Assembly (NCBI GenBank): GCA_903820035.1
Contig: CAIJFT010000054.1
Span: forward strand, 1 to 51,764
Reading direction: 5' to 3'
DNA length: 51,764 bases
Source: an uncultured Opitutia bacterium
Lineage (GTDB): Bacteria; Verrucomicrobiota; Verrucomicrobiia; Opitutales; Opitutaceae
Position 1 is the first letter of the stretch. Each line of letters starts with the position of its first letter. The notes under the pieces are model-generated. The model had not been told where the DNA came from, made no database searches, and was given only the letters and a program-made list of their open reading frames with translations. Made by a program: the position numbers and the translations under genes. Positions 1,867 through 28,578 of this stretch are shown here, in pieces.

Positions 1867-3072
1867 ATGTCCTACACTGAAGATCGCGCCGCCTGGTTCG
1901 AGGGCCAGGGACTCTGGCAACACATTCCGGAAAGTGATTGGCGCGACTGGACCTGGCAGTTGAAGCACCGGATCACCACGGCCGGGCAGTTGGAGCAGTT
2001 GATGACCCTCACGCCGGAGGAGAAGGCGGGCTGCGACTACGCGAGCCACAAGCTGGCGCTGGCGATCACGCCTTATTTTTTCAACCTGATCGACCGTCAC
2101 GACCCCCACTGCCCGATTCGTCGGCAGGTTATTCCGCGGGGCGAGGAGAGTGTGGTGTCGGAAGGCGAGATGCTCGACTCGCTCGGGGAGGATGAACACT
2201 CGCCGGTGGCCGGACTCGTGCACCGCTATCCAGACCGCGTGTTGTTTTTGGTGACGGATCGGTGTGCGGCGTACTGCCGGTACTGCACCCGCAGCCGGCT
2301 GGTTTCGAACGCGCAGGACTATAATTTTCACCCCGAGTACGAGCAGGGGCTGCGCTATATCGAGGCGCATCCGGAAATTCGCGACGTGCTCTTGTCCGGC
2401 GGAGATCCGCTGCTCCTCTCGGACCGCAAGCTCGAGCACCTGCTGGCGCGGCTGCGGGCGATCAAGCATGTGGAGTTTATCCGGATCGGGTCGCGGATTC
2501 CGGTCTTTCTGCCGCAGCGCATCACGCCGGAGTTGTGCGAGATCTTCAAACGCTACGGCCCGATTTGGATGAGCATCCATGTCAATCATCCGAAGGAGGC
2601 GACGGAAGAATTGCGCGCGGCGTGCGAGCGGATGGCGTTCTCCGGGGTGCCGCTGGGCAACCAGAGCGTGCTGCTGAAGGGGGTTAATGACGATGCCGAT
2701 GTGATGAGGGCCCTCGTGCATCGCCTGCTGCGCATGCGCGTGCGTCCGTACTACCTTTACCAGATGGACCTCATCACCGGTGGAGCCCACTTCAAGGTGG
2801 ATGTCCGCAAGGGCATCGAGATCATCCGGGCGCTGCGTGGAAACACGACGGGTTATGCGATTCCCCAGTATGTGATCGATGCACCCGGTGGCGGCGGCAA
2901 GGTGCCGATCAATCCCGACTACGTCGAGTCGGTGAACGACGATGAGATCGTGCTGCGGAATTACGAGGGCCGCACGTTCCGCTATCCGCTCAAGGCGAGT
3001 CCGCGCGCGCTGCCTGCGGCCAAGGTGGACGTCGCCGCGTTGGAACCGAGCGACAACGTGTTCGTGCCGTAG
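1867..3072 (+). CDS. kamA: L-lysine 2,3-aminomutase (radical SAM, PLP-dependent)
   Basis: The enzyme interconverts L-lysine and L-beta-lysine, used in lysine degradation or in making the osmolyte N-acetyl-beta-lysine. The 401-residue product has the radical SAM cluster motif CAAYCRYC (Cys133, 137, 140) and the PLP lysine in APGGGGK (Lys345). Both aspartates that bind the substrate amino group in the clostridial enzyme are present: Asp301 in QMDLITG and Asp338 in VIDAPGG. That argues against a glutamate 2,3-aminomutase. The length and full C-terminal domain argue against the shorter EF-P modifying EpmB. No beta-lysine acetyltransferase (ablB) or other lysine-fermentation gene is nearby, so the pathway is unclear. 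Confidence 0.88.
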   Translation: MSYTEDRAAWFEGQGLWQHIPESDWRDWTWQLKHRITTAGQLEQLMTLTPEEKAGCDYASHKLALAITPYFFNLIDRHDPHCPIRRQVIPRGEESVVSEGEMLDSLGEDEHSPVAGLVHRYPDRVLFLVTDRCAAYCRYCTRSRLVSNAQDYNFHPEYEQGLRYIEAHPEIRDVLLSGGDPLLLSDRKLEHLLARLRAIKHVEFIRIGSRIPVFLPQRITPELCEIFKRYGPIWMSIHVNHPKEATEELRAACERMAFSGVPLGNQSVLLKGVNDDADVMRALVHRLLRMRVRPYYLYQMDLITGGAHFKVDVRKGIEIIRALRGNTTGYAIPQYVIDAPGGGGKVPINPDYVESVNDDEIVLRNYEGRTFRYPLKASPRALPAAKVDVAALEPSDNVFVP

Positions 3073-3074
3073 GA

Positions 3075-3107
3075 CCGCGCTTTCGCTTTCGGCTCAAGCG
3101 CGGCTAC
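3075..3107 (-). repeat. REP-like hairpin with GTAG head
   Basis: CCGCGCTT (3075-3082) and AAGCGCGG (3096-3103) form a perfect 8-bp stem two bases after the kamA stop codon. On the minus strand the stem is directly preceded by GTAG (3104-3107), the head tetranucleotide also carried by the perfect pair at 50793-50860. The stem sequence differs from that family but the layout is the same. It lies between convergent kamA and the CotH gene and could also stabilise or end both transcripts. Confidence 0.5.
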
Positions 3108-3132
3108 GCCGATCCCGGACCCTTTCCCGCCG

Positions 3133-6100
3133 TCACGGCACCTCGTAGATCTCGAGCAGGGCCACGCCCTCGGTGTTGTTCTTGCCCTTCACCTCGACGG
3201 TGAAAGCGCCGGGCGGGAGGGTGATGAGTAGCGCCGCATCCTCACTGCCGGCGCCGAGGGCGAAGGCCCCGGCGTTCTTGGTGGCGGCAATAATCGCGGC
3301 GGCGTTGTCCGCGGCCTCCCAGCGATCGTTGGTCGCGACCACGGTCTGACCGGAATACAGGGTGAGGACGGGATCGCGCAACGCACCGGTCAGACCAAAC
3401 GCCGCGAGCGTTGGGCCGACCGCGCGCAGGAGCATGCGCTTGTAGGCCGGGCCCTGGACGACGAATCCGCCGATGAGTGCACCGTCGTCGGCGCGGACGC
3501 GCGCGCGGCTCGACAGGTTGACGGTGCGACCGTTGGTATCGAGTTCGTAGAGTTCGGCGAGGGCGAGGCCGGAACGGGAGGTGGGGCTGGTGATCTGCAA
3601 CGTGTAGGCGCCCGCTTTGAGATCGGTGGCCAACGCCGCGTCGAGGCTGCCGGTGGTGAGCGGGAAGGCGCCGACCGATTTGAAGTAGCCGGGCAGAGCG
3701 ACTGCGTCGGGGCCGCGTTCCCAGCCGTTGTTGCGGAAAAGTTCGGTGCCGGTACCGGAGAACACCGTCAACTGGGGATCAGGCAGAACTCCCGTCGCAC
3801 CGAATAACGCGAGGCCCGGGCCGATGGCGCGCGAGACATAGCGCTTGGCGACGGTGTCGGCGACCACGACCCCGGCGATCAAGGCGTCGTCACCGACGGA
3901 GGCCACGGCGCGGCTGGAAAGATTGACGATGCGGGCGCGGGGCGTGAGCGGGCTCGACGTGTCAGCGCCGACGGCCGAGCTCCAGGGACTGCCGGGAAAG
4001 GTGTTGCGCAGTTCCACGCGGTAGCTGCGCACGTGGACATTGGCGGTGGCGGGGAGAGTTACCGGAGCGGAGGTGAGGGTGGCGTTGACGGCAACCTCAC
4101 CGCCGAGGGACCGGGGATCCGAGCCGTCGAGCGTGTACGCCAGACGGGCGCCGGCGGGGGCGGTAAAGGTGATCGATGGGCCGGCCTTCACGGCGGCGGG
4201 CTCGCGGACGAACTGATCGTCGATCCATTGGGCCCGCAACGTGACCCAGCCCTTCAGATGGTCGAGGTGGGCGGTGTAGTTGCCGTAGGGGCTGAGGTTG
4301 TCCGGCCAACGTGCGACATCGCGGGTGACGGCGTCCTGTCCGATCTGGGCGCCGAGGGCCTCGACGAGGCGGATGAGGTTGGGATTCGACAGGTCGGCCC
4401 GGCGGAGGCTTTGCCAGCGGTCGACCCAGTCCTGCATAAACTCCGGATCGCGGGCGATGATACCCCACCAACCGGTGCGCCAGAAATCGACGCTGCCGAC
4501 GCCGGACCAAACGGTGTACTCGTACGAGCGTTCGTCCCAGTACGAGCCGAGGGCGCGGTCGAAGTCCCAGACGGGCCCGGCCTGCAACTTGCCCAGTCGG
4601 TCTTTCGTGAAGTAGGCGCTGCGTTGCAGGGCGTCGGGGTTTGAGGTGAACGTGTTCAGCAGGTGGTGGTCCACCCAGGAAGCGCGGTCGAGATAATCGA
4701 GGTGCGTGCGCTGCGACCAACCGCTGTCGCGGTCGGCGTAGAGTGCGTTCTCCATCGCCTGCACGTAATCGCGAATGTAGGTGACTTGCGCCGGCGCGAC
4801 GTTCCCGGCGGACGGATACACTAGGACGACTGAAGACGTGCCGTTTTCCGGCACCCCGTGCGTCGTGCGCCAGCCGATTTCGTCCGGATCCTTTGAGTCG
4901 ATTTTGAGAATGTACCCGCCGGTGAGGGCATTTCCGGAGACATCCGAGGGCGAGAGGTCCTTGATGTCCACGCGGCCCTTGCTGTTCTCGATCCGGTCGC
5001 TGAGCACGTAGATACCCGCGTAGTCGGTGTTCGTCAGATCGCCACCGTCGGTATTGAGGTACACCTCGGTGAAGCGGGTGCGCGGCGCCCAGCGGCCGAG
5101 TTGGTTGGAGAGGGAGTAGACGAAGGCGTTGTTGATGTAGCTCAGGTCGAATTTCCAGGGTCCGGTCAGGGCCCACCGCTCGTAAGCCGGCAGATCCAAT
5201 AGCGCCTGCTCGGTTCCGCTGCCGTCGGCCGGGGTGAAGCTCAAGGCCAGGCTCTTCTTGGGGAATTCCGCGGAGGTTGAGCCGCGGACATTCGTGGTGA
5301 GCGAGGTGCGGGTGTCGGGCGTTCGACCAAAGACGGCGCTGCCCGGGCTGCCCGCCGTGAACGCATAGAGCCAGGCGTTGTGTTCGACCCCGTCCTTGAC
5401 CAAGGGCCCGCTGCCCAGGCTGTCGATGACCAGCACCGGCAATTGACTGCTGAAAGCGCTGACGCTCGTTCCAATCTTGAGGTAGTGCACGGCAGAGACT
5501 GGGCCCATGGCGTTGCCGCTTTCCGAAAACACCGCGGCCTTAAGGAGAGTCGATGCGCTGACCGCAATGGCTCCGGTGTACAGGGGTGAGGTTGAGGTCG
5601 GGGCGGGCGCGCTCGCCCCATTGCCGCTCGGCGTGGCAACGTAGCGGATGCGCTGGTTTGCGGTCGCTCCGCTCAGCGTGATGCTGATCGTCCCCGTGAA
5701 AGGCCCGGCCAGGCGGGAATAGGTCACGGTTTGCTCGATCCCGCGGGCCCCCGCATTGGCGGTGCCGGGCGTGGGTTTCTCCAGAAAGTCATAGCCCGCG
5801 GCCGGTACGCTGGAGCCGCCGGGAATTCCGTAAGGTACGTTCGATCCCTGCGCCGGGTAGGTAACCTCGGAGGCGATCGTGATCCCGTCCGCGCGCACCA
5901 AGGCGAGGTACTCACCGCTGGCGCTCAGATGGAAATTGGTATGGGGCTGGGCGGCCGGATTGCGCCGGTCCTTGCCCGAAGCAAACACCACGAGGTAACC
6001 CCCGGCCGGAATCGTGGTGACGGGAAACTGCCAGCGCTTCTTGTTGTCTTTGGCGTCTGTTAGGTACCAGCCCGAGATTTCTTGTGGGGTATTCCCCGGG

Positions 6101-8295: not shown

Positions 8296-8402
8296 CGCCT
8301 GCCTGTAGGGGTGTCCTCCGCGGAGGACTGAGATTGCGGCACGCTCGGCTGCTCGACCCTTCGAACCTGAACGGATCATGCCGACGAAGGAAACAGCAGG
8401 CG
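8296..8402 (+). promoter_or_regulatory. TPP riboswitch (THI element)
   Basis: The conserved core of the thiamin pyrophosphate riboswitch is present in order: GGGGTG (8308-8313), CTGAGA (8328-8333), GAACCTGA (8363-8370), then GGATCATGCCGACGAAGGAA ending at 8392. A P1 stem forms between 8296-8306 and 8393-8402 (CGCCTG/CTGT with ACAG/CAGGCG, one bulged base). Downstream, AGGCGC (8398-8403) can instead pair with GCGCCT (8412-8417). That would break P1 and could be the switching helix. The riboswitch lies 76 nt before the start of a TonB-dependent receptor. Confidence 0.93.
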
Positions 8403-8478
8403 CCGCACACAGCGCCTAGGGGCGCGCGACGCCCGTCTTCTGCGGTAGTCCGGTTTGGGTCAGGCCCAGCCCGATACT

Positions 8479-10617
8479 ATGAAACTCCCGCACCTCCTTC
8501 CTCTGCTTGCGCCGCTCTTCGTCGCGACCTTGGCGCTCCGCGCTCAATCCGCCTCAGGTCCGGCGACTGCCGGTGCCGCCTCCCCGGTCAAACTCGAACC
8601 GGTGCTGGTTACCAGCGATCTCTGGGAGTCGCCGCTGGCCCGCATCCCGGCCAGTGTCGCGGTTTTTGATGACGACGCACTCCGGGCCGGCGCGGTGCGC
8701 CACTTTGGGGACTTGGCCGACCAGATTCCCAATCTCACGTGGACCGGCGCTACGTCGCGTCCACGCTATTTTCAGATCCGTGGCATCGGGGAGAATTCGC
8801 AGTATGAGGGCGAAACCCCCGACTCCGCCGTGCGCTTCCTGGTCGACGACCTCGACTTCACCGGCCTTGGCACGTTGGGCGGTACCTTCGATGTCCGCCA
8901 AGCCGAGATCCTGCGTGGTCCGCAAGCCGGAGCGTTTGGGGCCAACGCCGCGGGCGGCGTCGTCCGTCTCCTCACCAATGCCCCCACGCCGTTCTGGACG
9001 GGGCGCATCGAGGCGACCGCGGGTCAGGACGCCCTGCGGGAAGGTGGGTTTGCCGTGGGTGGTTCGCTTTCCCCGCAACATCCCGAGCAATTGATGATGC
9101 GCTTGGCGGTGCACGAGCACTCCAGTGACGGTTTTCGCCGCAACGTAACGCTTAACCGCGACACCAACGCACGCGATGAATTCACCGCACGGCTTCGTTT
9201 TACCGCCAACCCGTCCCCCGCGTGGCGCTGGGAAGGCGCGATTCTGGTCTCCGAGGTCGCCAACGGCTTCGATGAATTCGCCCTCGATAACAACGGCCGC
9301 CGCACCTTCAGCGACCAGCCCGGTCGCGATGAACAGCGTTCGCGCGCCGCCAGCCTGCGCGGAACCTACACGGGGTTGGCCGGAGTCCGCGTGACCACGG
9401 TCTCGGCCGCCAGCCGCGTCAAGTCGGTCTACAGCTACGACGACGACTGGACCGCCGCGTCGTATCAGGGTTTCAGTGACCTGCGGCGCGACCGCACGGT
9501 GTTCAACCAGGAACTCCGGCTCGACTCCACCGCGACCCGCGGTGCGCTCGGGGCGGTCGACCGGTGGACGTTGGGGGCGTTCTACTCCAACACGGAGGAG
9601 GGTGGGGCCTACACCGACACGGACCCGGATAACGTGCGCGGCCTGCGGACCAAGTATGAGAGCGCGACCTATGCCCTTTACGGTCAGGCGGCGCACGATT
9701 TCTCCGCCCGCACGCGGCTTGTCCTCGGGTTGCGGACCGAACGCGTCGAGCTTGACGGGCACGGGACCAAGACCCGTTACCGCGCCGCGCGCCGCGGTTT
9801 TGATCCCGAGGTCACGTTCCGGCCCGGGTTCGCCGACACCCTGGTCGGTGGCAAACTGACGCTGGAGCACGAGCTCGACGCCCGCCACCTACTCTTCACC
9901 TCCGTCACCCGTGGGTACAAGGCGGGCGGTATCAACCTCGACGCCCGCATCAGTCCGCCGGACGATCCGCTCACCTTCGGCACCGAGACCTTGTGGAACT
10001 ATGAGGCGGGCGTGCGCGGCGCCTGGTTGGATCGCCGGCTGACGGGCGAGCTGACCGTCTTCCGGCTCGAGCGCCGCCACACGCAGGTGCGCGACTCGGC
10101 CGGCTTTGGCGGCAACTACCGCTTCTTTACTGCGAACGGCCGCCACGCCCACGTTACGGGCCTCGAGGCCTCCGCTGCGTTCGCGATCACGCGCGAGCTG
10201 TCGTTGCACGGTTCCCTTGCCCAGATGGAGTCGGAGCTCGGCCGCTTCACGCTGACCAACGGCAACACCGGCGGCGGTCGCCGGCTCGCGAATACGCCGC
10301 GCTACGGCTACACGGTCGGCCCGCGCTACCGCCAGGCCTCGGGCTTTTTTGCCAACGCGGAGCTGGTCGGCCGCGCCGCCCACTACGATTCCAATAACCA
10401 GAACGAGGCGCGCCGGGCTTTTCGTCTCGTGAACGGTAGTCTCGGGTACGCTTGGTCGGCGTGGACGTTCACGCTGTGGGGCCGGAATCTCGGCAACACC
10501 CGCTACGAGAAGCGCGTGTTTTTCTTTGGCAACGCGGATCCGGATTACAACGAGACCCGCTACGAGGACCGCGCCGATCCGCGGCAGCTCGGGGTGTCCG
10601 CGGCCTACCGCTTTTGA
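8479..10617 (+). CDS. TonB-dependent outer-membrane receptor under TPP riboswitch control (probable thiamin or precursor uptake)
   Basis: This outer-membrane beta-barrel transporter (712 residues) is driven by TonB. It has a signal peptide (about 1-23), a TonB-box-like VKLEPVLVTS (about 37-46), a plug domain with the RIPASVAVF start, YFQIRGIG and VRQAEILRGPQAGAFGANAAGGVV, and a barrel ending in an aromatic C-terminal residue (AAYRF). The plug and barrel resemble small-molecule receptors more than the large SusC-like ones elsewhere in the window. The TPP riboswitch directly upstream means expression should fall when TPP is plentiful, so thiamin, TPP or a pyrimidine precursor is the likely cargo. 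THI-box-controlled TonB receptors are known in other phyla. ATG at 8479 is chosen for its signal peptide over TTG at 8455. Confidence 0.88.
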   Translation: MKLPHLLPLLAPLFVATLALRAQSASGPATAGAASPVKLEPVLVTSDLWESPLARIPASVAVFDDDALRAGAVRHFGDLADQIPNLTWTGATSRPRYFQIRGIGENSQYEGETPDSAVRFLVDDLDFTGLGTLGGTFDVRQAEILRGPQAGAFGANAAGGVVRLLTNAPTPFWTGRIEATAGQDALREGGFAVGGSLSPQHPEQLMMRLAVHEHSSDGFRRNVTLNRDTNARDEFTARLRFTANPSPAWRWEGAILVSEVANGFDEFALDNNGRRTFSDQPGRDEQRSRAASLRGTYTGLAGVRVTTVSAASRVKSVYSYDDDWTAASYQGFSDLRRDRTVFNQELRLDSTATRGALGAVDRWTLGAFYSNTEEGGAYTDTDPDNVRGLRTKYESATYALYGQAAHDFSARTRLVLGLRTERVELDGHGTKTRYRAARRGFDPEVTFRPGFADTLVGGKLTLEHELDARHLLFTSVTRGYKAGGINLDARISPPDDPLTFGTETLWNYEAGVRGAWLDRRLTGELTVFRLERRHTQVRDSAGFGGNYRFFTANGRHAHVTGLEASAAFAITRELSLHGSLAQMESELGRFTLTNGNTGGGRRLANTPRYGYTVGPRYRQASGFFANAELVGRAAHYDSNNQNEARRAFRLVNGSLGYAWSAWTFTLWGRNLGNTRYEKRVFFFGNADPDYNETRYEDRADPRQLGVSAAYRF

Positions 10618-10791
10618 TCCGAGATCGCTCCGGTCTAACGCGGCGACGATCATTCTGAAAACGCGGCAGGCCCCGACTTGGGCCGTCTGCGGGCAAGGAG
10701 CCTCTTCGCACGGCCGGGGCATGGAGCCGCTCGCACCCGCCATCGGCCGGCTTGCACGCGGCGGCGCGGCACGTTCCACTATCCCTTCGTC

Positions 10792-11385
10792 ATGATCGGT
10801 CTCCATGAAGGCAAGGGCACCAAGGCCAAAAAGCCGCCGGAACGCGCGTATGCACTGCGACTCACCGTCGCCGGGTGTCAGCCGCGCATCTGGCGGCGCC
10901 TGCTGGTGCGGGAGACGATGTGGCTTTCGCGGCTGCACGACACCATTCAGGTCGCTTTCGACTGGTTCGATTACCAGACGCACGTCTTTGCCCTCGACGA
11001 CCTGCGTTTCGGCAATCCGGTGAAACGCGAGGACCTGACCGTGGAGGACGATCGGGATGTCGCCTTGGCCGACCTCGACTTCGAACACCGCGAGCGTTTC
11101 ACGTATCACTACAACTTTGGCGAGGGCTGGCAGATTGACCTGAAGGTGGAGAAGTCCGGCCTGGTTGAAAAGGGACTCCGTTACCCGGTGTGCATCGCGG
11201 GCGAACGCGCCGGGCCGCCCGAGGACTGCGGGGGACGCGAGGCTTTCCAGGACATGCTGGCGTGCATCAAGGAGCCGAACACCGATCTCGGTCGCGAATG
11301 GCTCGAATGGCTCGGCCCCGAGTACGATCCCGCGGCCTGCGAGCTCGAGAAAATCAACAAGGCGTTGAAGAAGCTGGGCAAGTAG
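10792..11385 (+). CDS. Plasmid pRiA4b Orf3-like family protein
   Basis: This soluble protein of 197 residues belongs to the PRiA4_ORF3 family (also annotated as IS1096-passenger TnpR-like). Family features seen are ALRLTVAGCQPRIWRRLLV near the N-terminus, LHDTIQVAFDWFDYQTHVF, the YHYNFGEGWQIDLKVE block, CIAGERAGPPEDCGG, and WLEWLGPEYDPAACELEKIN near the end. The biochemical role of the family is unknown. Despite the name there is no transposase or inverted-repeat boundary nearby. It stands alone between two TonB receptor genes. ATG at 10792 is used because homology begins just after it; an upstream extension (from 10678) has no family similarity. Confidence 0.82.
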   Translation: MIGLHEGKGTKAKKPPERAYALRLTVAGCQPRIWRRLLVRETMWLSRLHDTIQVAFDWFDYQTHVFALDDLRFGNPVKREDLTVEDDRDVALADLDFEHRERFTYHYNFGEGWQIDLKVEKSGLVEKGLRYPVCIAGERAGPPEDCGGREAFQDMLACIKEPNTDLGREWLEWLGPEYDPAACELEKINKALKKLGK

Positions 11386-11501
11386 CGGAAAAAGAGCTTT
11401 AGCGGGGGCTGTCGGTCGCACCCCAAATGCCATCGGTTAATGATTCCCGGCGGCGTGCGCCCGTTTCCGTTGGCAGGCCGTACCCCCTCTTTGAAGCACC
11501 T

Positions 11502-14486
11502 ATGAAAACCCCGCTCTACTTGGTCCGCCTTGGCGCAGCCGTTCTTCTGGTGATCGCCAACCTGCACGCCCAAGGTGCCGCCGGCGCCACGATCCAAGGC
11601 CGTATCCTGAGTCAGGCGACGCAGGAGTACCTGCGTAATGTCGAGGTCACGGTGCCCGGTTCCAATGTCGCCGCGTTCACGACGGAGGACGGCTTTTTCA
11701 CCCTGGCCGGCGTGCCTGCCGGCGAGGTGCAGGTGGCGGCCTCCTATACGGGTTATGACCCGGTGGCGGTGCGCTTGACGGTTACGGCGGGCGCCACGGT
11801 CACCCGGAACTTTGAACTGGCGCCCACCGGCTACCGGCCGGTTTCGCCTCCGGTCGGGAAGCCCGATGCGGGCATCGTGACCCTGGGGCAGTTCGTCGTC
11901 TCCTCCGAGCGCGAGGGCAACGCCAAGGCGATCATGGATCAGCGTGCGGCGATCAATGTGAAGAACGTCATCTCGGCCGATAACTTCGGCGACATCACCA
12001 ACGGCAACGTCGGCGAATTCATCAAGTACATGCCCGGCGTCGTCATCGACTACAACCAGTCCGACGCCCGTGCCGTGCGCATCGGCGGACTCGATCCGAA
12101 ATATGTGGGGGTGAGTGTCGACGGCATGCGGCTCGCCAGCGCACAGGGCGCGGCCTTCGGCTCGGACTCCCGGCAGTTTGAATTCGAGCAGTCCTCCATC
12201 AACAGCGTCGAGGCCATCGAGGTGAACAAGACGCTCACCGCCCGGATGGACGCCGATTCGCCGGCCGGCTCGATCAACCTGCGCAGCCGCAGCGCGTTCG
12301 ACCGCAAGGGTCGCGAGATCACCGCGCAATTCTCGGTGTCGGCCAACGAATACAACCTGACGCTGCGCCGCGTCGCCTCCCCGACCAACGCCCTCCGGCG
12401 CGTCGCTTTTCCGGGTGGCACGTTGAGTTACTCGGACGTTTTTGGCGGCCGCTTCGGCGTGCAGCTCAACGTCGGCACCTCCACCATCTACGGCGAGCAG
12501 GAGCAGATCACGCACGCTTATGATTTTTCCAACGCCGCGCGGGGACCGGTCATCACCGGGCTTACCTTCAAGGACGCCCCCAAGGTGATCGATCGCGCCT
12601 CCCTCGGGGCCAATTTCGACTACAAGATCACCCCGCATCTCATCGCCTCGGTCCGTATCACCGGCTCGCACTTGAGCGACGAGTTTGTGGCCCGGAATCT
12701 CCAGTTCACCGCGAACCTCGCGCAGATCGATCCGTCATCCACGCTGACCAAGGTCATCGCCAACCCGGTCGCCAGCGCCAACACCCGTCTCGACTCCTCG
12801 GGCAACCACCGCAACAAGCGCAACGACACGATCACCTACGTGCCCAAGCTGGAATACCAGCGCGGCGACCTGACGCTCACCGCCGGAGGCGGTTATTCGC
12901 GCAGTGGCACCCATTACGAGGATCTGCGCCAGGGCTATTTTCAGAGTGTGAACCTCCGGCTCACGCGCCTGAGCTGGATGGCCGAGCGCGCCAATACCAA
13001 CTCCACCGATTGGACCGTCACGCAGCTCTCCGGCCGGCCGTGGGGCGACATCGCCAACTGGGGTCGGGATGACGCCAACGCCAACAACATGGTCAGCACC
13101 GCGCGCGGCGGGCAGAGCCAAGTCTTCTCCGGCAACCTCGACGCGAAGACCTCCGTCAACCTCGCGGGCCTGCCCGTGCAGCTCCTCGCCGGGGCGAAGA
13201 CCCGCCTCACCACCTTCGACATCACCTGGGGCGGGACCCAGAACTGGACCTTTGTCGGCCCGCGCGGATCGCAGACCGATCCGACCACGGTCATGATCGA
13301 CGAGTCGCAGCATCGGTTCGATCCGAAGCGCGGCGGCAACGTCACGCAGCAGAATTTCCCTTGGCCCGACTCCAACGCGATGGCCTCCTATTTTTCCGCC
13401 CATCCCGGCGAGTTCGTGCCGAACGCGGTCGGTAATTTCACCAATACGTTCACCACGCCGCGTTCGATCAAGGAGCAGATCGACGCGGCCTACCTCGAAG
13501 GCAACACGCGGTGGCAGCAAATCCGCTTTAACCTCGGCGCCCGTTTCGAGCGCACCCGCGATATCGGCCGGACCTACGACATTTTGCCGGCCGCCGCGGT
13601 GCGCGCCGCCGGCTACACGGCGGGCACCATCCCGTACCTCGTCTACCAATACCGCAACGGTGCCCGGCCCTCCACGTACGGAGACTATGGCAACATGTTC
13701 TTCAGCGGCGGGGCGAAGTACTCCTTCACCCGTAACCTCGTCTTCCAGGTTGCCGCCAGCCAGTCGATCGGGCGTCCCAACTACGACAGCCTCGCGGGCG
13801 TCATCGCGGTCGACGAGACCCGGCAGCAGGTCACGTTGCCCAATCCGAATCTCAAGCCCGAGACCTCCGACAAGTATTTCGTCAGCGCGCAATATTACAT
13901 CGAGCCCGCCGGCACGATCACGCTCTCGGCCTACAAGCTCGTCGTGGAAAACATGGGCACCACCTCCGAAATCGTTTCCGCCGCCGAGGCCGGCTATGCC
14001 GACGACCCGGAGTACAACGGTTATACCTTCCTGCGGGCCGCGAACGCCGCCGGCACCCGTCGCATCAAGGGCATCGATCTCGAGTACAGCCAGCAGCTGA
14101 CGTTTCTCCCCGGGTTCCTGCGCGGCCTCAGCGTCTTCGGCTCCGTCTCGCGCACGGTTCCGGATGTGCAGATCGTGAATCTCAACTCAAAGTCGGCCAA
14201 CGGCGGTCTGCGTTTCGGCAACCATCGGTTCAATGCGCAGGTGCGGTTCACGTGGACCGCGGCGCGCCTCACCTCGATCACGGCGGCGCGGACCCAGTGG
14301 GAGCGCGAGCGTCTGATGTTTGATCTGAGCGGCGGCTACAAAATCAACCGGACCTACGAGCTGACCCTGAGCTGCCGCAACGTGTTCAACCAAGCGCTCG
14401 AATCCTACTTCAACGTCCCCGGCACCATCGCCTACAAGGACAACTTCGGCGCCGTCTGGACGGTCGGCGTGCGCGGCCGTTTCTAA
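11502..14486 (+). CDS. TonB-dependent receptor with N-terminal carboxypeptidase-regulatory-like domain
   Basis: This is a large outer-membrane transporter of 994 residues. It has a signal peptide (about 1-23), a carboxypeptidase-regulatory-like beta-sandwich (about 28-107, TIQGRILSQATQEYLRNVEV), a TonB-box-like VTLGQFVVSS (126-135), a plug (NVGEFIKYMPGVVIDY, VRIGGLDPKYVGVSVDGM, INSVEAIEVNKTLTARMDADSPAGSINL) and a C-terminal barrel ending GVRGRF. It is a paralogue of the receptors at 39530 and 42578: all three share the REGNAKAI/ETNGQAI helix, N(V/I)GEF and xPG(V/L). The 13-bp gap to the following sulfatase suggests an operon and import of desulfated glycan pieces. No SusD-like lipoprotein accompanies it. 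ATG at 11502 starts a proper signal peptide. Confidence 0.92.
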   Translation: MKTPLYLVRLGAAVLLVIANLHAQGAAGATIQGRILSQATQEYLRNVEVTVPGSNVAAFTTEDGFFTLAGVPAGEVQVAASYTGYDPVAVRLTVTAGATVTRNFELAPTGYRPVSPPVGKPDAGIVTLGQFVVSSEREGNAKAIMDQRAAINVKNVISADNFGDITNGNVGEFIKYMPGVVIDYNQSDARAVRIGGLDPKYVGVSVDGMRLASAQGAAFGSDSRQFEFEQSSINSVEAIEVNKTLTARMDADSPAGSINLRSRSAFDRKGREITAQFSVSANEYNLTLRRVASPTNALRRVAFPGGTLSYSDVFGGRFGVQLNVGTSTIYGEQEQITHAYDFSNAARGPVITGLTFKDAPKVIDRASLGANFDYKITPHLIASVRITGSHLSDEFVARNLQFTANLAQIDPSSTLTKVIANPVASANTRLDSSGNHRNKRNDTITYVPKLEYQRGDLTLTAGGGYSRSGTHYEDLRQGYFQSVNLRLTRLSWMAERANTNSTDWTVTQLSGRPWGDIANWGRDDANANNMVSTARGGQSQVFSGNLDAKTSVNLAGLPVQLLAGAKTRLTTFDITWGGTQNWTFVGPRGSQTDPTTVMIDESQHRFDPKRGGNVTQQNFPWPDSNAMASYFSAHPGEFVPNAVGNFTNTFTTPRSIKEQIDAAYLEGNTRWQQIRFNLGARFERTRDIGRTYDILPAAAVRAAGYTAGTIPYLVYQYRNGARPSTYGDYGNMFFSGGAKYSFTRNLVFQVAASQSIGRPNYDSLAGVIAVDETRQQVTLPNPNLKPETSDKYFVSAQYYIEPAGTITLSAYKLVVENMGTTSEIVSAAEAGYADDPEYNGYTFLRAANAAGTRRIKGIDLEYSQQLTFLPGFLRGLSVFGSVSRTVPDVQIVNLNSKSANGGLRFGNHRFNAQVRFTWTAARLTSITAARTQWERERLMFDLSGGYKINRTYELTLSCRNVFNQALESYFNVPGTIAYKDNFGAVWTVGVRGRF

Positions 14487-14499
14487 TCTTACGCTACCC

Positions 14500-16422
14500 A
14501 TGAAATCACGCCTCCTCGCCTCGGTCGGCCTTTGTCTCGGCTGGTTCCTCTCCGGCGCCCGTGCCGCCGATCACCCCCACATCCTCTGGATCACCAGTGA
14601 GGACCACGGCCAGCAAATGGGCTGCTACGGCGACCCGTTGGCGCGTACGCCCAACGTGGATGCACTGGCGGCGAGGGGCATGCTCTTCCGCAACGTCTGG
14701 TCGAACGCCCCGGTCTGCGCCGCCGCCCGCACCACGATCATCTCGGGCATGCTGGCCCCGTCCCTCGGCGCCGAGCACATGCGGAGCGAGGTGGCCTTTC
14801 CGGCCGGCATCAAGATGTACCCGCAGTATCTCCGGGACGCCGGCTACTACTGCACGAACAACAACAAGGAGGACTATAACCTCACCAAGCCGGGGCAGGT
14901 CTGGGACGAATCCTCGGTCAAGGCCCACTGGCGCAACCGCCCCGCCGGCAAGCCGTTCTTCGCCATCTTTAATTCGACTCTCAGCCACGAGAGCCAGGTC
15001 ATCAAGCGGCCGCATACGCTCGTCACGGATCCGGCAAAAGTGCGGGTTCCGGCCTACCATCCCGACACCCCGGAGGTCCGGCACGACTGGGCGCAGTATT
15101 ATGATGTCGTCAGCGCCGTGGATGGCGTCGCCGGCGAGAAGTTGAAGGAGCTGGAGGAAGCCGGGCTCGCCGACGACACGATCGTATTTTACTATGCCGA
15201 TCACGGCGCCGGCCTGCCGCGCAGCAAGCGTTGGCCGTCGGACTCGGGTCTGCGCGTGCCGATGGTCGTCTATTTTCCCGCCAAGTGGCGTCATCTCGCG
15301 CCGAAGGAGTACGCCCCCGGGGTGAAATCCGACCGCCTGATCAGCTTCGTCGATCTCGCGCCCACCTTGCTCAGTCTCGCGGGGGTCCGTCCGCCGGCGA
15401 CGATGCAGGGCTTTGCGTTCGCCGGTTCGTTCCAGACGGAGCCGCAAACCTTCCTCTATGGCTTCCGGGGGCGGATGGACGAGCGCTACGACTTGGTTCG
15501 TTCCGTGACCGACGGCCGCTACGTTTACCTGCGCAATTATATGCTGCATCGCTCGCAGGGTCAGCATGTGAACACCCAGTTTCTGACTCCGACGACCCAA
15601 GTCTGGCGGCGCATGTACGATGCGGGTCAAACGAATGCCGCCCAGTCGATCTTCTGGCGCGAGCCCAAGTCGCCGGAGGAGTTGTATGACCTCCGCGCCG
15701 ATCCGGACGAGACGCGCAACCTCGCGGATTCCGCCGAACACCGTGCGATCCTGGAGAAATTCCGGCAGGCGCAGCAGGCCGTGGCGCTGCGCGTGCGCGA
15801 CAAGGGCTTCCTGACCGAAGCCGAGGTCAATGCCCGCTCGGCCGGCAAGGCCCCGTACGATGTACTCGCGACCGACACGGCGTATCCGTTTGCCCGGATC
15901 TTCCAAGCGGCGAACGCCGCGACCCTGCTGAGCGCCGCAGCGGTGCCGCAGCTGCGGGAGAACTGCCGCGATGCCGACAGCGGGGTGCGCTATTGGGGCG
16001 TGATGGGCGCGCTCGTCCGGGGTAAAACGGGCGTCGATGCAATGTTGGCCGAACTGCGGACGGCGTTGGGCGACTCCGCGCCGAGCGTGCGGATTGTCGC
16101 CGCCGAGGCGCTCGTGCGCTATGGCCCGTCGGACGATGTTGCGGCCGGACTGGCGGCGCTCAAGGCGAGCGTCGATCCGACCAAGGTGGGTGCTTACGCC
16201 AGTGTGGCCGCGCTCACGACCATCAACGAACTCGGGGCCAAGGCGGCCTCGCTCCATGATTTCATCCGCACCATGCCTTCCAGCGACCCGACGGCGGTGG
16301 CCCGCGGTGACGGCTACGTCGCACGGTTGCAGTCCTACATCACCGGCAAGGGTGAGGCGGGCGGTGATGCCGCTGAAGGCGACGCTCCGAAAAAGAAGCG
16401 CGCGAAGAAAGCGGCGAAGTGA
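14500..16422 (+). CDS. Exported sulfatase (formylglycine-type) with C-terminal HEAT-like region
   Basis: The protein hydrolyses a sulfate ester, probably on a polysaccharide or oligosaccharide in the periplasm. It is 640 residues: a signal peptide (1-22), then an alkaline-phosphatase-fold sulfatase domain. Metal-binding ITSEDHGQ and the maturation motif CAAAR (Cys73, to be converted to formylglycine) are seen, as is YYADHGAG. The motif is the C-x-A-x-R type. Residues from about 470 form helical, HEAT-like repeats (VPQLRENCRDADSGVRYWGVMGAL region), an arrangement known in PVC sulfatases, and the tail is Lys-rich. The sulfated substrate is not identifiable from sequence. It is probably co-transcribed with the TonB receptor 13 bp upstream. 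A sulfatase-maturating enzyme is not in the window. Confidence 0.93.
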   Translation: MKSRLLASVGLCLGWFLSGARAADHPHILWITSEDHGQQMGCYGDPLARTPNVDALAARGMLFRNVWSNAPVCAAARTTIISGMLAPSLGAEHMRSEVAFPAGIKMYPQYLRDAGYYCTNNNKEDYNLTKPGQVWDESSVKAHWRNRPAGKPFFAIFNSTLSHESQVIKRPHTLVTDPAKVRVPAYHPDTPEVRHDWAQYYDVVSAVDGVAGEKLKELEEAGLADDTIVFYYADHGAGLPRSKRWPSDSGLRVPMVVYFPAKWRHLAPKEYAPGVKSDRLISFVDLAPTLLSLAGVRPPATMQGFAFAGSFQTEPQTFLYGFRGRMDERYDLVRSVTDGRYVYLRNYMLHRSQGQHVNTQFLTPTTQVWRRMYDAGQTNAAQSIFWREPKSPEELYDLRADPDETRNLADSAEHRAILEKFRQAQQAVALRVRDKGFLTEAEVNARSAGKAPYDVLATDTAYPFARIFQAANAATLLSAAAVPQLRENCRDADSGVRYWGVMGALVRGKTGVDAMLAELRTALGDSAPSVRIVAAEALVRYGPSDDVAAGLAALKASVDPTKVGAYASVAALTTINELGAKAASLHDFIRTMPSSDPTAVARGDGYVARLQSYITGKGEAGGDAAEGDAPKKKRAKKAAK

Positions 16423-16576: not shown

Positions 16577-19507
16577 ATGATATCCCGCATCCTTCGCGCC
16601 GTCGTCGCGCTTGCCCTCTCCAGTGCGGCCCTGCCCGCTCTCGTTCATGCCCAAGCCGCGCCCAAGGCGACGGCTCCGGTGGGATCCGCCAAGGCGGAAG
16701 ACACCATCACGCTCTCGGTTTTCGAGGTGAAGTCCGACTCGACCGACACCTATGAGGCGACCAACACCAACTTCATCACCGGGACCAACACGGCGCTGAA
16801 CAAGACCCCGCTCGACGCCAAGGTCTTCAACCGCCAGATGCTCGATGATATGGGTACGGTCGATATGACCGAAATGCTCTGGAAGCTCGGCGGCCTCGGC
16901 GCCGCCCTGATCGGCAACGGCAACGAGGACGTGCGCGGCACCGTCGAGGGCGACCGGCAGGACCCGAAGAGCATGTCGATGCGCGGACTCCAGATCAACA
17001 ACCCGCGCCGCGACGGTTTTCTCCGCTCCGATACGACCTTGCTCGACACCTTCGACATCGACCGCGTCGAGGCCATCGGCGGTTCCAACTCACTCCTCTT
17101 CGGCTCCGGCGACGCCGGCGGTGTCATCACCTCCGCGTCGAAGCGCGCCTACCTGAACCGGCGCCCGACGATGACCGTCTCCGCCACCGGCGACTCCGAA
17201 GGCACCCGCCGTTACACCGTCGATGCGCAGGTTGGGATGAAGTATTTCGCCTTCCGCGTGAACGGCGTGCGCGACGACACGAACTACTTCCGGCCCGGCC
17301 TGAAGCGTCACGCCGAGGGCTACCACCTCACCGCCACCGTGCAGCCGTGGAAACGGCTCCAGATTCGCGGCGAGTACCGCTACTACAACCGCGACACCAT
17401 TTTTGCCCAATCGGTGACCGTGCGCGCACCCCTGACCTGGCTACTGCCCAACGGTACCCGCGTCGACAACCAGTCCACCCGCTACCTGGTCGCGTTCCCG
17501 GAGATCTCGCAGATCACCGGCGGCGCCTTCGACCTGACGAAGGTGGATTCCGCGACGGGTCCGTACACCCGCGACGATTATTTCAACTATATCAAGTCCG
17601 TCGTCGCCGAAGCCACGATCACCGAGGGCCTCGCCATCCAGTTGCGCTACGGGCACGACGACCGGGTGAATGACGCCCCGCGGCCGAGCAGCACGACCGT
17701 TTATGCCCCTGGCGCCGCCGGCAACCTCTACGTCGATCCCGTCACCGGCGTCGTCGGTCAGAAATGGGCGTTCAACACCTCCGTCATCGCCACGCCCTTC
17801 TGGACCGGTGCCCGCGGCTACCGCGCGGCGCTCGCGTATCAGAAAAACTTGGGCAAGTGGTTCGGTCGCCATCAGGCGAGCCTGTTCCGCCAGGACATGG
17901 AGTCATGGGTGAACCAGATGACGATGCGTTTCTATGAAACCGACGCCAACGGTGCGATCATCCAGAACCCGGCCAATCTCACCAACGCCGAGTCGGGGCG
18001 CAACGTCATGCCCGGCGCTTGGGTGCCGATCTTCCCGGACGCGATTCTCGGCGGGAAGGACTGGCGCGTAAGTACGATTCAGCATCCCAACGGCAAATTC
18101 TACAAATTCGCCCCGCAGGTTTATGCCGACGCGGTGCCGAAGACGGCGGGCAACCCGATGGGTGTCTCCGGCGGCGCCAACGCCACCACGGGTAATCCGA
18201 ACAACACGTCCTACCTGATGGACGACACCGATGAGAAGAGCTGGGGCGCGAGCCTTTTCAGCGAGTGGTGGAACGGTAAGATCGATACGATGGCCGGCCT
18301 CCGCCGCGAGGAGGCCACCGGCTTCCGCAAGCACCTCGGCCTGCAGCGCGGACCGATCTCCTACGACAGCGTGACGCTCGGCACCGTGTTCGACACCCCG
18401 GTCAAGGACCTGCGGATGTCGTTCAATTACGGCTCCAACGGGAAAATCAATTTCGACACCACCCGCGACATCTTCAACGAGCCGCTGCCTCCGGGCAAAG
18501 GCGTGAGCAAGGATGTCGGATTCAAATTCGACCTCTTCGAGCGCCGGCTCTCCGGTAACGTCAACTACTACCAATCCGAGGCGCAGAATTTCACCGCCAC
18601 CATCGGCAGCCGCGATGATGTCGATCCGAGCGGCATCAACGGCCGCCATGGCGGCAACGCGTACGTCTACAGCAAGAAGTCCGACGGCTATAACCTCACG
18701 CTCTCGGCCCACCCGACCCGCAATTGGGAAATGCGGATCAACTTTGCCAGCGCCAACGGCTCCGAGCGCAGCAACGTCGACCTGCCGCAGTTCTACAACG
18801 ACCAGTTCAACACCACGACGGTGGGCGGTCAGACCGTCGTCGGCGTCAAGGCCAACGCGACCGCCTCGGTCGTGCCGTTCCTGGTGCCCTCCGATCCCAA
18901 GAATCCGGTGTCGCCGCAAGTTCCGCTCTCCGTCGCGATGCTGAAGGATCCGAACAGCCCGTACTTCGCGACGATCGATCCCGAGGGCGGCCAAATCACC
19001 AACGCCCAGAACCTTGGTTTGTTGTCGGCCGGCGTCGGCACCGGAGTCAACGGCCTGCCGATCACCGACCATCAACTCGGCTTCGTGTCGCCCACCGGCG
19101 GCAACCTGATCGTGCGCCGCGCGGGCGAAGCGACGGTCGGTTATGCCGAGCGTTCCTACAGCTGGGTGAACACCTATCGTTTTTCGGAGGGCACGCTGCG
19201 CGGTTTGTCCGCGGGTCTCATCTCGAGTTACCAGCAGAACTATCGCGGCTACATGTACAACGACGCCGCCGACGGCAATAAGCGGAAGATGTTCCTGTTC
19301 CCGAACCGGATGCTCCACGACATGTTTGCGAGCTACAATTTCCGCCTCAACCGCTGGGTGCGTGCCTCCGTGCAGCTCAACGTGAGCAACCTGCTCGACG
19401 CGAACCGCGTGCTCTACCTCGTCAACAGTTCCAACGGCACCCTCCGCTACGCGCAGTGGTTCAACGCCCCGCGCAAGTTCGCGCTCACGACGCGGTTGAG
19501 CTACTGA
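16577..19507 (+). CDS. TonB-dependent receptor (paralogue of the one at 32062)
   Basis: This outer-membrane TonB-dependent transporter has 976 residues: a signal peptide (about 1-26), a TonB-box-like TITLSVFEVK (43-52), a plug (YEATNTNFITGTNTALNKTP, MSMRGLQINNPRRDGFLR, VEAIGGSNSLLFGSGDAGGVI) and a long barrel ending TTRLSY. It is clearly paralogous to the receptor at 32062. Shared segments include YEATNTN, PRRDGFLRS, NYYQ.../TYYQ with NFxATxGS, GINGRxGG, YNDxFNTTTVGGQ and RxAGEATxGYAE. A hairpin and a perfect inverted repeat lie in the 154-bp gap after the sulfatase, so it is probably its own transcription unit. It converges with the lacI-type gene. Substrate is unknown, most likely an oligosaccharide. 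Confidence 0.92.
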   Translation: MISRILRAVVALALSSAALPALVHAQAAPKATAPVGSAKAEDTITLSVFEVKSDSTDTYEATNTNFITGTNTALNKTPLDAKVFNRQMLDDMGTVDMTEMLWKLGGLGAALIGNGNEDVRGTVEGDRQDPKSMSMRGLQINNPRRDGFLRSDTTLLDTFDIDRVEAIGGSNSLLFGSGDAGGVITSASKRAYLNRRPTMTVSATGDSEGTRRYTVDAQVGMKYFAFRVNGVRDDTNYFRPGLKRHAEGYHLTATVQPWKRLQIRGEYRYYNRDTIFAQSVTVRAPLTWLLPNGTRVDNQSTRYLVAFPEISQITGGAFDLTKVDSATGPYTRDDYFNYIKSVVAEATITEGLAIQLRYGHDDRVNDAPRPSSTTVYAPGAAGNLYVDPVTGVVGQKWAFNTSVIATPFWTGARGYRAALAYQKNLGKWFGRHQASLFRQDMESWVNQMTMRFYETDANGAIIQNPANLTNAESGRNVMPGAWVPIFPDAILGGKDWRVSTIQHPNGKFYKFAPQVYADAVPKTAGNPMGVSGGANATTGNPNNTSYLMDDTDEKSWGASLFSEWWNGKIDTMAGLRREEATGFRKHLGLQRGPISYDSVTLGTVFDTPVKDLRMSFNYGSNGKINFDTTRDIFNEPLPPGKGVSKDVGFKFDLFERRLSGNVNYYQSEAQNFTATIGSRDDVDPSGINGRHGGNAYVYSKKSDGYNLTLSAHPTRNWEMRINFASANGSERSNVDLPQFYNDQFNTTTVGGQTVVGVKANATASVVPFLVPSDPKNPVSPQVPLSVAMLKDPNSPYFATIDPEGGQITNAQNLGLLSAGVGTGVNGLPITDHQLGFVSPTGGNLIVRRAGEATVGYAERSYSWVNTYRFSEGTLRGLSAGLISSYQQNYRGYMYNDAADGNKRKMFLFPNRMLHDMFASYNFRLNRWVRASVQLNVSNLLDANRVLYLVNSSNGTLRYAQWFNAPRKFALTTRLSY

Positions 19508-20734: not shown

Positions 20735-20750
20735 GGTGAACGGTTTCACC
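20735..20750. promoter_or_regulatory. LacI-type operator (site a, autoregulatory)
   Basis: GGTGAACGGTTTCACC has 6-bp perfect arms (GGTGAA/TTCACC) around CGGT. It directly abuts the proposed start of the lacI-type gene. Four similar sites occur in the window at 20921, 23362, 31964 and 37384. Confidence 0.75.
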
Positions 20751-21037
20751 GGTGGTCGGCGTGTTGCAACCGCCGAGTGGATCAAGGCCGCGCCGAACCG
20801 CTCCGGGATTTATCCCGTCGCGTCCGTCCTGATGCGTATCGGGACCTACCGCCTGAAACGCGCCGTGGGCTGGGATCCGAAGAAGGAAGGAATCGGATAA
20901 GGGTAGTAGGCTTTGGCCGAGGTGAACGATTTCACCGCTCCTTCGGTTGCGCGCGGTTTAGAATTCCGCTTCATTGGAGGCTGTGCCTGCCGGCCCGTGC
21001 CGGGGGCGTTGCCACGTTCCAACCCCTGATACTCGTC
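20751..21037. other. Regulatory gap between the lacI-type gene and a TonB receptor
   Basis: The gap of about 300 bp between the divergent genes has no credible coding frame of its own. It holds operator sites a (just outside, 20735-20750) and b (20921-20936). At 20831-20880 there is a stretch resembling 35011-35080 downstream of a TonB receptor: GATG, ATCGGG, ACCTA, TGAAACG, CGCC, GTGG and GGATCC occur in the same order. This may be a remnant of the second palindromic repeat family. Confidence 0.5.
20921..20936. promoter_or_regulatory. LacI-type operator (site b)
   Basis: GGTGAACGATTTCACC lies 102 bp upstream of the TonB receptor ATG at 21038 and is identical to site c. GGTTGC follows a few bases downstream at both b and c, so a promoter element may sit at a fixed offset. 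Confidence 0.8.
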
Positions 21038-23474: not shown

Positions 23475-23483
23475 TTGTTTCCC

Positions 23484-28262: not shown

Positions 28263-28578
28263 ATGTGAGCCGAATCGCGCGAGCGAACGAGCGTACTCGG
28301 CCCGATGCGGAGCCGAGCCGCAAATCGCCTCGGCCCATCAAGCCCATCGTCCGCGACCAAATCGAGTGGCCACCAGGACGCACAAAAACCGTCCGCTCCG
28401 ACGCCATTTTACCCGGGCCTATAGGCCCACGGGAGATTTCCGCCCAACCCCGGGAAGTCTGCGCCTTTTTGTGGCACCCCGGCGTGCGAGCGGATCGTCT
28501 TTTTACCTAGCGCCAGCCGAACCTGACCCCTTACAGAACGCAGCGCGGCGCGCGATTCGCCGCCTGCCCAACTCATCC
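28263..28578 (+). other. 316-bp gap with two short hairpins
   Basis: No gene is credible in this gap. CTCGGC/GCCGAG (28296-28301 with 28312-28317) forms a 6-bp stem after the ThuA stop, which could be a weak terminator. GGGCCTATAGGCCC (28415-28428) is a perfect 14-bp palindrome of unknown role. No LacI-type operator is present. Confidence 0.45.

What the first reader, a model, noticed from the sequence alone, without database searches (positions are those of the whole stretch)
8296..10617. TPP riboswitch controlling a TonB-dependent receptor
All conserved core blocks of a TPP riboswitch lie 76 nt before a TonB receptor gene that is not in a thiamin biosynthesis operon. This assigns a likely cargo (thiamin, TPP or a pyrimidine precursor) to a receptor that protein similarity alone would not identify. 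THI-box-controlled receptors are known in other phyla; in this group it is a useful functional anchor.
Basis: partly seen in the sequence, partly recalled or inferred. Interest (0 to 1): 0.72.

Follow-up and report, generated by a model that had tools for sequence, protein, structure and literature searches.

The report
TPP riboswitch controlling outer-membrane thiamin receptor
A vitamin-B1-sensing RNA switch sits in front of the gene for a likely outer-membrane vitamin B1 importer in a bacterium that seems unable to make the vitamin, and in its relatives the same switch and gene start are also found attached to a quite different importer.

Summary
Observation confirmed: Rfam RF00059 matches window 8297-8409 (59.5 bits, E 3e-9), 69 nt before a 712-aa TonB receptor gene (8479-10617). 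It is the only TPP riboswitch detected in this 6.05-Mb MAG. The genome shows no ThiC, ThiG, ThiE or thiamin pyrophosphokinase but has ThiL, so thiamin or its phosphates are the likely cargo, a pyrimidine precursor is not. Of 80 homologs returned (99 found), all 77 with upstream DNA carry the aptamer core, six of them gammaproteobacterial at 30-34% identity. This is the known Omr1/OMthi kind; omr1 use by Opitutales is in print. New here: in Opitutaceae the same riboswitch leader, in several genomes with the first nine codons, also precedes a non-orthologous TonB receptor (type B), mostly in the same gene neighbourhood and scattered among type-A genera, so the receptor appears to have been exchanged under a conserved leader. 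A PnuC/PnuT-like transporter and NadR-like kinase, beside or in the riboswitch operon in other lineages, are candidates for the inner-membrane and kinase steps (inference).

The parts
8297..8409 (+). TPP riboswitch aptamer (RF00059)
   Evidence: 59.5 bits, E 3e-9, full-length model match; only one found in the assembly
8420..8443 (+). Candidate expression-platform hairpin GGGCG-CGCGA-CGCCC with a weak T-containing tail (terminator-like in relatives, weak here)
   Evidence: the consensus scanner did not report it on the + strand; platform fold z -0.11
8444..8505 (+). Leader element and first nine codons, the stretch that in relatives is shared between type-A and type-B receptor genes; diverged in this window
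8479..10617 (+). TonB-dependent receptor (type A, Omr1-like), predicted thiamin importer
   Evidence: PF07715, PF00593; homologs under the same riboswitch
10789..11385 (+). PRiA4_ORF3-like gene (PF07929), a downstream marker of the locus for both receptor types
1867..3072 (+). KamA-family radical SAM protein gene, an upstream marker of the locus for both receptor types

Best explanation
The element is a TPP riboswitch that represses, when cytoplasmic TPP is plentiful, the gene of a TonB-dependent outer-membrane receptor importing thiamin in a thiamin-auxotrophic opitutacean. Shown: the aptamer, the receptor, no detected de novo thiamin genes, conservation of the pair across Opitutales and in some Gammaproteobacteria. 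Inferred: thiamin crosses the outer membrane through the receptor with TonB energy, crosses the inner membrane by a PnuC/PnuT-family facilitator, is phosphorylated to TMP (candidate: the NadR-like AAA_28 kinase encoded next to it), is converted to TPP by ThiL, and TPP then closes the aptamer and favours a hairpin that stops transcription before the receptor start. In relatives the riboswitch leader and first codons persist while the receptor body behind them belongs to either of two non-orthologous families.
For: Riboswitch; sole one in the assembly. No ThiC, ThiG or ThiE hit in G000; ThiL above cut-off; TPK hit in 0 of 49 Opitutaceae genomes. Of 35 Opitutaceae genomes without ThiC, 33 have receptor A (25) or B (8), behind the riboswitch in 32 and cut by a contig end in one (G009); of 14 with ThiC, 3 have receptor A. 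Aptamer core before the receptor in 76 of 80 returned homologs by pattern (0.26 expected by chance) and in one more by Rfam; the other three contigs begin inside the gene. PnuC/PnuT family in 34 of 36 receptor-bearing and 3 of 13 receptor-less Opitutaceae genomes. In four Verrucomicrobiaceae loci (L088, L091, L096, L098) riboswitch, receptor, PnuT-like gene and AAA_28 kinase follow each other; in four gammaproteobacterial loci a PnuT-like gene follows the receptor. Terminator-like hairpins in 29 of 61 leaders against 5.0 +- 2.6 in shuffles.
Against: The window's own expression platform is weak: no + strand terminator by the consensus scan, fold no better than shuffles, start-codon arms pairing less well than the average with other leaders. 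In B. thetaiotaomicron the riboswitch-preceded OMthi and pnuT operons showed no significant transcript change with thiamin, and single transporter mutants no growth defect (PMC5613172, passages). The own PnuT/kinase pair is on another contig and scores as PnuC (above cut-off) and as the NadR kinase part, though riboswitch-linked PnuT-like proteins of L088, L112, L113, G033 and G059 also score above the PnuC cut-off, so that model does not tell them apart; trees do not place the own pair with the riboswitch-linked ones. The kinship-corrected test of receptor against PnuT has 5 pairs (3 same way, 0 opposite, 2 undecided, p 0.25). ThiD, ThiM, TenA, THI4/THI5 and YjbQ were not searched. Two ThiC-less genomes (G014, G016) showed neither receptor nor riboswitch.
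Confidence: 0.87

Rival explanations
1. The receptor imports thiamin phosphates (TMP or TPP) rather than free thiamin; ThiL then finishes the job without any thiamin kinase.
For: ThiL is present and TPK undetected in the own genome; TPK is undetected in all 49 Opitutaceae genomes searched. A PhoD-like phosphatase gene precedes the riboswitch in the window.
Against: PnuT-like facilitators occur with the receptor and in its operon in other lineages; the Bacteroides PnuT is said to transport thiamin when expressed in E. coli (PMC5613172, passage). A close PhoD homolog (over 60% identity) is seen in 12 of the 80 receptor loci only.
Confidence: 0.22
2. The cargo is a pyrimidine precursor (HMP), as for ThiV in Pelagibacterales.
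For: A TPP riboswitch lies next to the pyrimidine transporter gene thiV in Pelagibacterales (PMC10881298, passage); one relative (G053) has a weak riboswitch match before an SSF symporter.
Against: No ThiE and no ThiG detected in the window's genome, so HMP could not be joined to a thiazole by the usual route; the same holds for all 25 Opitutaceae genomes with receptor A and no ThiC.
Confidence: 0.04
3. The PnuC-like transporter and NadR-like kinase belong to nicotinamide riboside salvage and have nothing to do with this receptor; their co-occurrence reflects kinship or general loss of biosynthesis in auxotrophs.
For: PnuC-NadR is a known NR module (PMC7221760, passages); NCBIfam names the own and the other tested transporters PnuC; trees do not group the own pair with the riboswitch-linked ones; one ThiC-positive genome without receptor (G037) has such a pair; the kinship-corrected test is not significant.
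Against: The pair is behind the riboswitch and receptor in L088, L091, L096, L098 and divergent beside them in G033, G044, G059; PF04973 is absent from 10 of 11 ThiC-positive genomes without receptor and present in 3 of 3 with receptor.
Confidence: 0.35
4. Types A and B did not replace each other in place: an ancestor carried both and each lineage lost one, or the whole locus moved between lineages.
For: Both types occur with the riboswitch in other families of the order (A: G050, G051, G058, G059; B: G052, G061, G075). Interleaving on the rpoB tree alone cannot tell replacement from loss or transfer.
Against: None of 76 genomes holds both A and riboswitch-linked B. In the closest pairs leader and first codons are near-identical while the receptor bodies are not alignable pairwise, which needs a junction inside the gene. 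Leader distance follows rpoB distance for A-B pairs (rho 0.71, 126 pairs) as for same-type pairs (rho 0.71, 225 pairs; pairs not independent).
Confidence: 0.35

Closest known systems
Omr1 / OMR under THI elements (Proteobacteria, Flavobacteriales, Opitutales)
   Same: TonB-dependent receptor behind a TPP riboswitch, in taxa short of thiamin synthesis; omr1 use by Opitutales reported (PMC12442306, passages); riboswitch near omr1 in SAR86 and Flavobacteriales (PMC10881298, passages); THI-controlled omr in metagenomes (PMC2211319, passages).
   Different: The passages I saw do not describe two non-orthologous receptors sharing one leader, nor a ThiL-only route. Orthology of type A or B to the Omr1 query protein was not tested.
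OMthi-PnuT-Tnr3 of Bacteroides thetaiotaomicron (BT2390, BT2396-2397)
   Same: Outer-membrane receptor and PnuT in TPP-riboswitch operons; removing either from a biosynthesis mutant raises the thiamin needed about tenfold (PMC5613172, passages).
   Different: Bacteroides has the biosynthetic operon and Tnr3; no ThiC, ThiG, ThiE or TPK was found in the window's genome, and its PnuT-like gene is on another contig.
PnuC-NadR nicotinamide riboside uptake
   Same: PF04973 transporter followed by an AAA_28 NadR-like kinase.
   Different: In L088, L091, L096 and L098 the pair lies behind a TPP riboswitch and a TonB receptor.
TonB siderophore receptors (FyuA, CirA, enantio-pyochelin receptor)
   Same: Nearest solved relatives by sequence.
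   Different: Far below the NCBIfam cut-offs of every listed receptor family.

Membership tests
TPP riboswitch (RF00059) | Covariance-model score above the curated gathering score | tested here: met
   59.5 against 54.3 bits
TPP riboswitch (RF00059) | Full aptamer with conserved core | tested here: met
   model positions 1-105, CUGAGA and GAACCU blocks present; a few non-standard pairs, one in P1
TPP riboswitch (RF00059) | Upstream of a thiamin-related gene, conserved in relatives | tested here: met
TPP riboswitch (RF00059) | TPP-dependent change of structure or expression | not testable with these tools
   needs in-line probing or reporter assay
Omr1/OMthi thiamin receptors | TonB-dependent receptor with plug and barrel | tested here: met
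Omr1/OMthi thiamin receptors | Preceded by a TPP riboswitch | tested here: met
Omr1/OMthi thiamin receptors | Sequence orthology to BT2390 or the Omr1 reference protein | not tested
   I did not obtain these reference sequences
Omr1/OMthi thiamin receptors | Thiamin uptake | not testable with these tools
   needs mutant growth or binding data
Named siderophore/heme/B12 receptor families (NCBIfam) | Score above curated cut-off | tested here: not met
   best 43.7 bits against a cut-off of 316.85
Intrinsic-terminator riboswitch platform | GC hairpin followed by T-tract between aptamer and start | tested here: inconclusive
   29 of 61 leaders against 5.0 +- 2.6 shuffled; the window's own hairpin passes the script's rule only weakly (5 pairs, 4 T in 9) and is not found
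PnuT thiamin transporter (own PF04973 protein) | Grouping with riboswitch-linked PnuT rather than PnuC | tested here: inconclusive
   deep branches unresolved; PnuC model also hits riboswitch-linked ones

The most novel reading that the evidence does not exclude
A TPP-riboswitch leader with the 5' end of the coding sequence acts as a fixed regulatory stub behind which non-orthologous TonB receptors for thiamin are exchanged, repeatedly, at one chromosomal slot in Opitutaceae; and the lineage makes TPP from imported thiamin with a NadR-type thiamin kinase plus ThiL instead of thiamin pyrophosphokinase.
Probability: 0.45. Interest if true: 0.66.

Novelty: new variant of a known kind. Interest (0 to 1): 0.5.

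Why it matters
It gives a likely cargo to two TonB receptor families that sequence alone would place near siderophore or heme receptors, marks many Opitutaceae as dependent on external vitamin B1, and names a testable candidate for their missing thiamin kinase. The shared leader before two non-orthologous receptors suggests that a riboswitch can stay while the transporter it controls is replaced, perhaps under pressure from phages or toxins that use receptors (speculation).

Tried and rejected
Considered and dropped: HMP as cargo (ThiE, ThiG undetected); a link to the upstream PhoD phosphatase (close homolog in 12 of 80 receptor loci); a siderophore role (far below family cut-offs). Gapped global identities were useless as a measure because the coding stretch after the signal region also gave about 0.74; the ungapped, ATG-anchored comparison replaced them, and its -30..-1 bin is uninformative because spacer lengths differ. 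The rpoB distances were wrong for some rows (wrong strand translated) and were recomputed; the rpoB tree used the right strands. Covariation tests gave no proof for the start-codon hairpin or the terminator helix (most measures reached by many shuffles; the start-codon helix pairs in 84.9% of cells, reached by 7 of 500; terminator pairs with a change on both sides, 3, reached by 17 of 500). PnuT and kinase trees did not settle substrate. In the table only full-length ThiG hits (E below 1e-90) were counted; weak partial hits in G012, G026, G041, G042, G047, G048 were left out as cross-hits. Type B was counted only where the riboswitch precedes it; the lower-identity hits (29-36%) were left out. 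The comparisons left out two A and two B leaders whose starts were mis-picked and the leaders of other families. Of the 61 leaders two are the same (L058 and G003), and neither has a hairpin hit. No structure prediction or fold search was run.
Full report
Observation. A covariance scan of the whole window finds one RNA family match, a TPP riboswitch at 8297-8409 on the + strand (59.5 bits, gathering score 54.3, E 3e-9, full-length). The next gene, from ATG 8479 to 10617, encodes a 712-residue TonB-dependent receptor with plug and barrel domains. No NCBIfam receptor family comes near its cut-off, and solved relatives are weak (best E 2e-8, pesticin receptor). The window is contig C54 of a 6.05-Mb assembly, rated 98% complete and 4.43% contaminated, in which this is the only TPP riboswitch found.

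Thiamin economy of the host. Searches of 76 genomes (own included) give for the own genome: no ThiC, no ThiG, no ThiE/TenI family, no thiamin pyrophosphokinase, but ThiL above its cut-off. An incomplete assembly could hide genes, but ThiC, ThiG (full-length) and ThiE are undetected in all 25 Opitutaceae genomes that have receptor A and no ThiC, among them the single-contig genome G045. Among 49 Opitutaceae genomes (group f1), 35 lack ThiC; 33 of these carry receptor A (25) or B (8), and two (G014, G016) neither receptor nor detected riboswitch. Of 14 with ThiC, 3 also have receptor A (Fisher p 8e-7, not corrected for kinship). The kinship-corrected test has only 4 pairs on well-supported branches: on average 2.9 go the expected way, 0.0 the other, 1.1 undecided, median p 0.25. 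Without ThiE and ThiG, import of the pyrimidine alone would not help by the usual route, so thiamin or its phosphates are the likely cargo. Alternative enzymes (THI4, THI5, YjbQ, ThiM, TenA, ThiD) were not searched.

Conservation of the pair. A scan of genome contigs with the receptor found 99 relatives and returned the best 80 loci, mostly Opitutaceae and other Verrucomicrobiota, plus six Gammaproteobacteria at 30-34% identity. An aptamer-core pattern lies 83-274 nt before the receptor match in 76 of 80; 15 further pattern hits fall elsewhere in the 1.87 million base-strands of these loci, so 0.26 would be expected by chance. Rfam confirms the riboswitch in the six gammaproteobacterial loci, including L118, which the pattern missed. 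The three remaining loci (L103, L105, L110) begin inside the receptor. So 77 of 77 testable returned homologs have it. These loci and the 76 genomes overlap in part. In the 76 genomes, 62 hold 68 TPP riboswitch matches at E 0.001 or better, 53 genomes with one over the cut-off. By position I assign 32 to receptor A (including the distant G069 homolog, 31% identity), 11 to receptor B, 21 to ThiC, 2 to a ThiM-ThiE unit (G028, G057), 1 to an SSF symporter (G053) and 1 to a contig end (G020).

A second receptor under the same leader. In 8 Opitutaceae genomes without ThiC and without receptor A, and in 3 genomes of other families, the riboswitch precedes a different TonB receptor of roughly 770-810 residues, type B. 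A and B do not align beyond chance in a pairwise BLASTP (E 0.048). Profile comparison does show them to be distant members of the TonB receptor superfamily (probability 98.8, E 9e-17, 22% identity over 254 barrel columns), so they are non-orthologous, not unrelated in fold. No genome of 76 has both A and riboswitch-linked B. Yet Opitutaceae leaders of both types align from the aptamer to the start codon and, in several genomes, on into the coding sequence; the ThiC leaders printed from G018, G031, G037, G041 and G068 look different to the eye. Anchored at the ATG without gaps, the closest pair, A_G046 and B_G048, is identical through codon 9, 0.78 and 0.72 identical over +28..+45 and +46..+63, and at 0.37 and 0.33 after that; over all 150 A-B pairs (25 A, 6 B) the values for +4..+15 and +16..+27 are 0.52 and 0.53, against 0.35-0.36 for other genes of the window and 0.43-0.46 for A-A pairs. 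A 21-base string from codons 3-9 occurs, with up to 2 mismatches, at 9 places in 8 of the 76 genomes; 8 are starts of riboswitch-controlled receptors (5 type A, 3 type B), the ninth has 2 mismatches and no seen link; the reversed control string had 1 hit. The window's own receptor start has diverged from it (0 hits in G000).

Same neighbourhood. In the window the order is CarA, KamA (1867-3072), CotH-like, PhoD-like, riboswitch, receptor A, PRiA4_ORF3-like gene (10789-11385). KamA homologs lie in 30 and PRiA4 homologs in 34 of the 80 receptor-A loci (many loci have short flanks). Beside receptor B, KamA lies upstream in G029, G034, G040, G048 and, in another family, G061; a CarA gene precedes KamA in G034, G040 and G048; PRiA4 lies downstream in G029, G039, G040, G042 and, about 7-10 kb away, G048. 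So 6 of the 8 Opitutaceae type-B genomes share at least one marker. Against: no marker in G032 within about 8 kb upstream and 12 kb downstream, none in G027 (short contig), no PRiA4 found downstream in G034, and no KamA in the 8-kb upstream stretches of G052 and G075.

Phylogeny. On an rpoB tree of 45 genomes (quick method) the 9 type-B rows are scattered: at least 9 changes between A and B rows; starred branches force at least 7 changes of the label B against all other labels; shuffled labels need 8.4 on average, so B is not clustered. On the leader tree A and B are likewise not clustered (8 changes for 8 B rows, shuffled mean 7.5; starred branches force 3), and A_G046 and B_G048 are sisters (SH-aLRT 95). 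Leader distance follows rpoB distance for A-B pairs (rho 0.71, 126 pairs) as for same-type pairs (rho 0.71, 225 pairs; 27 rows, pairs not independent). I read this as inheritance of the leader with the genome and exchange of the receptor behind it. Differential loss from a two-receptor ancestor or transfer of the whole locus is not excluded.

Downstream route. A PnuC/PnuT-family gene (PF04973) is found in 34 of 36 receptor-bearing Opitutaceae genomes (missing in G019 and G021, rated 70% and 73% complete) and in 3 of 13 without receptor (G014, G016, G037). The kinship-corrected test has 5 pairs, 3 in favour, 0 against, 2 undecided, p 0.25. In 18 of 20 such loci that I chose and fetched (19 genomes) a homolog of a NadR-like AAA_28 kinase lies within about 200 nt. 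In the own genome the pair is at C317 1875-2961, both domains confirmed. In four Verrucomicrobiaceae loci riboswitch, receptor, PnuT-like gene and kinase lie in that order (the pair of L088 confirmed by Pfam); in four gammaproteobacterial loci a PnuT-like gene follows the receptor; in G033, G044 and G059 the pair is divergent from riboswitch and receptor. Since TPK is undetected and ThiL kept, such a kinase could supply TMP. Against this, transporters score as PnuC and kinases as the NadR kinase part (riboswitch-linked ones do so too), PnuC-NadR is a known NR module (PMC7221760, passages), and the trees are unresolved.

Expression platform. A GC-rich hairpin followed by a T-containing tail occurs between aptamer and start in 29 of 61 leaders (60 distinct), against 5.0 +- 2.6 in shuffles, so transcription termination is likely for the family. 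In the window the hairpin (8420-8434) is short and its tail weak; one search reports no + strand terminator and no excess stability. Arms around the start codon pair better with their own than with other leaders on average (mean -19.7 against -17.8 kcal/mol, own better in 43 of 61; shuffled -17.7 +- 0.4), but not in the window (-15.5 against -16.6), and covariation is not significant.

Literature. Passages read: omr1 as putative B1 transporter and its use by Opitutales (PMC12442306); omr1 near TPP riboswitches in SAR86 and Flavobacteriales (PMC10881298); THI-controlled omr in metagenomes (PMC2211319); OMthi and PnuT genetics in B. theta, where the transport operons showed no significant transcript response to thiamin (PMC5613172). 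Searches for Opitutaceae with thiamin and TonB, for TPP riboswitch with Opitut, and for receptor replacement under riboswitches found nothing relevant in the held library (0 papers; 3 listed, none on this by title and abstract); subscription papers are mostly missing, so this is weak evidence of novelty. Rodionov's 2002 THI-element study and the names Omr1 and ThiK are partly recalled, not read.

Verdict. The finding is real and its interpretation right in substance; the riboswitch-receptor pair itself is a known kind. The shared leader before two non-orthologous receptors, and the candidate kinase for a ThiL-only route, are the parts worth following.

Noticed in passing
window 11427-14486, 16577-19507, 20720-23332, 23475-25703, 39530-42517, 42518-45712: Six further genes with TonB-receptor plug domains (two of them without a reported barrel), plus a sulfatase (14500-16422) and a GH2 glycosidase (35125-37230): a polymer-degradation-like neighbourhood.
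   Followed up: no
window 28366-31968: 1200-residue ORF joining a GDSL lipase-like domain, DUF7133, HEAT repeats and a cupredoxin domain.
   Followed up: no
L297 (G039:C387) 2347-5682: A NadR-like kinase homolog, a type-B-like TonB receptor paralog and a PnuT-like gene follow each other on one strand; no TPP riboswitch was reported there.
   Followed up: partly
L283 1875-2961 and the other PnuT-kinase loci: The own PnuT-like protein is only 49% identical to that of G001 while the adjacent kinases are 72% identical, so the transporter may also have been exchanged beside a conserved kinase.
   Followed up: partly
L181 (G053), ORF 673-2031: A low-scoring TPP riboswitch match (37.7 bits, under cut-off) precedes a sodium:solute symporter, reminiscent of ThiV.
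   Followed up: no
L119 13252-13473 (-): Cobalamin riboswitch (101.9 bits) about 5 kb downstream of the TPP-controlled receptor in a gammaproteobacterial contig.
   Followed up: no
G014 and G016: Two genomes of the window's genus with neither ThiC nor receptor nor detected TPP riboswitch, although PnuT-like and kinase genes are present; missing assembly or another route.
   Followed up: no
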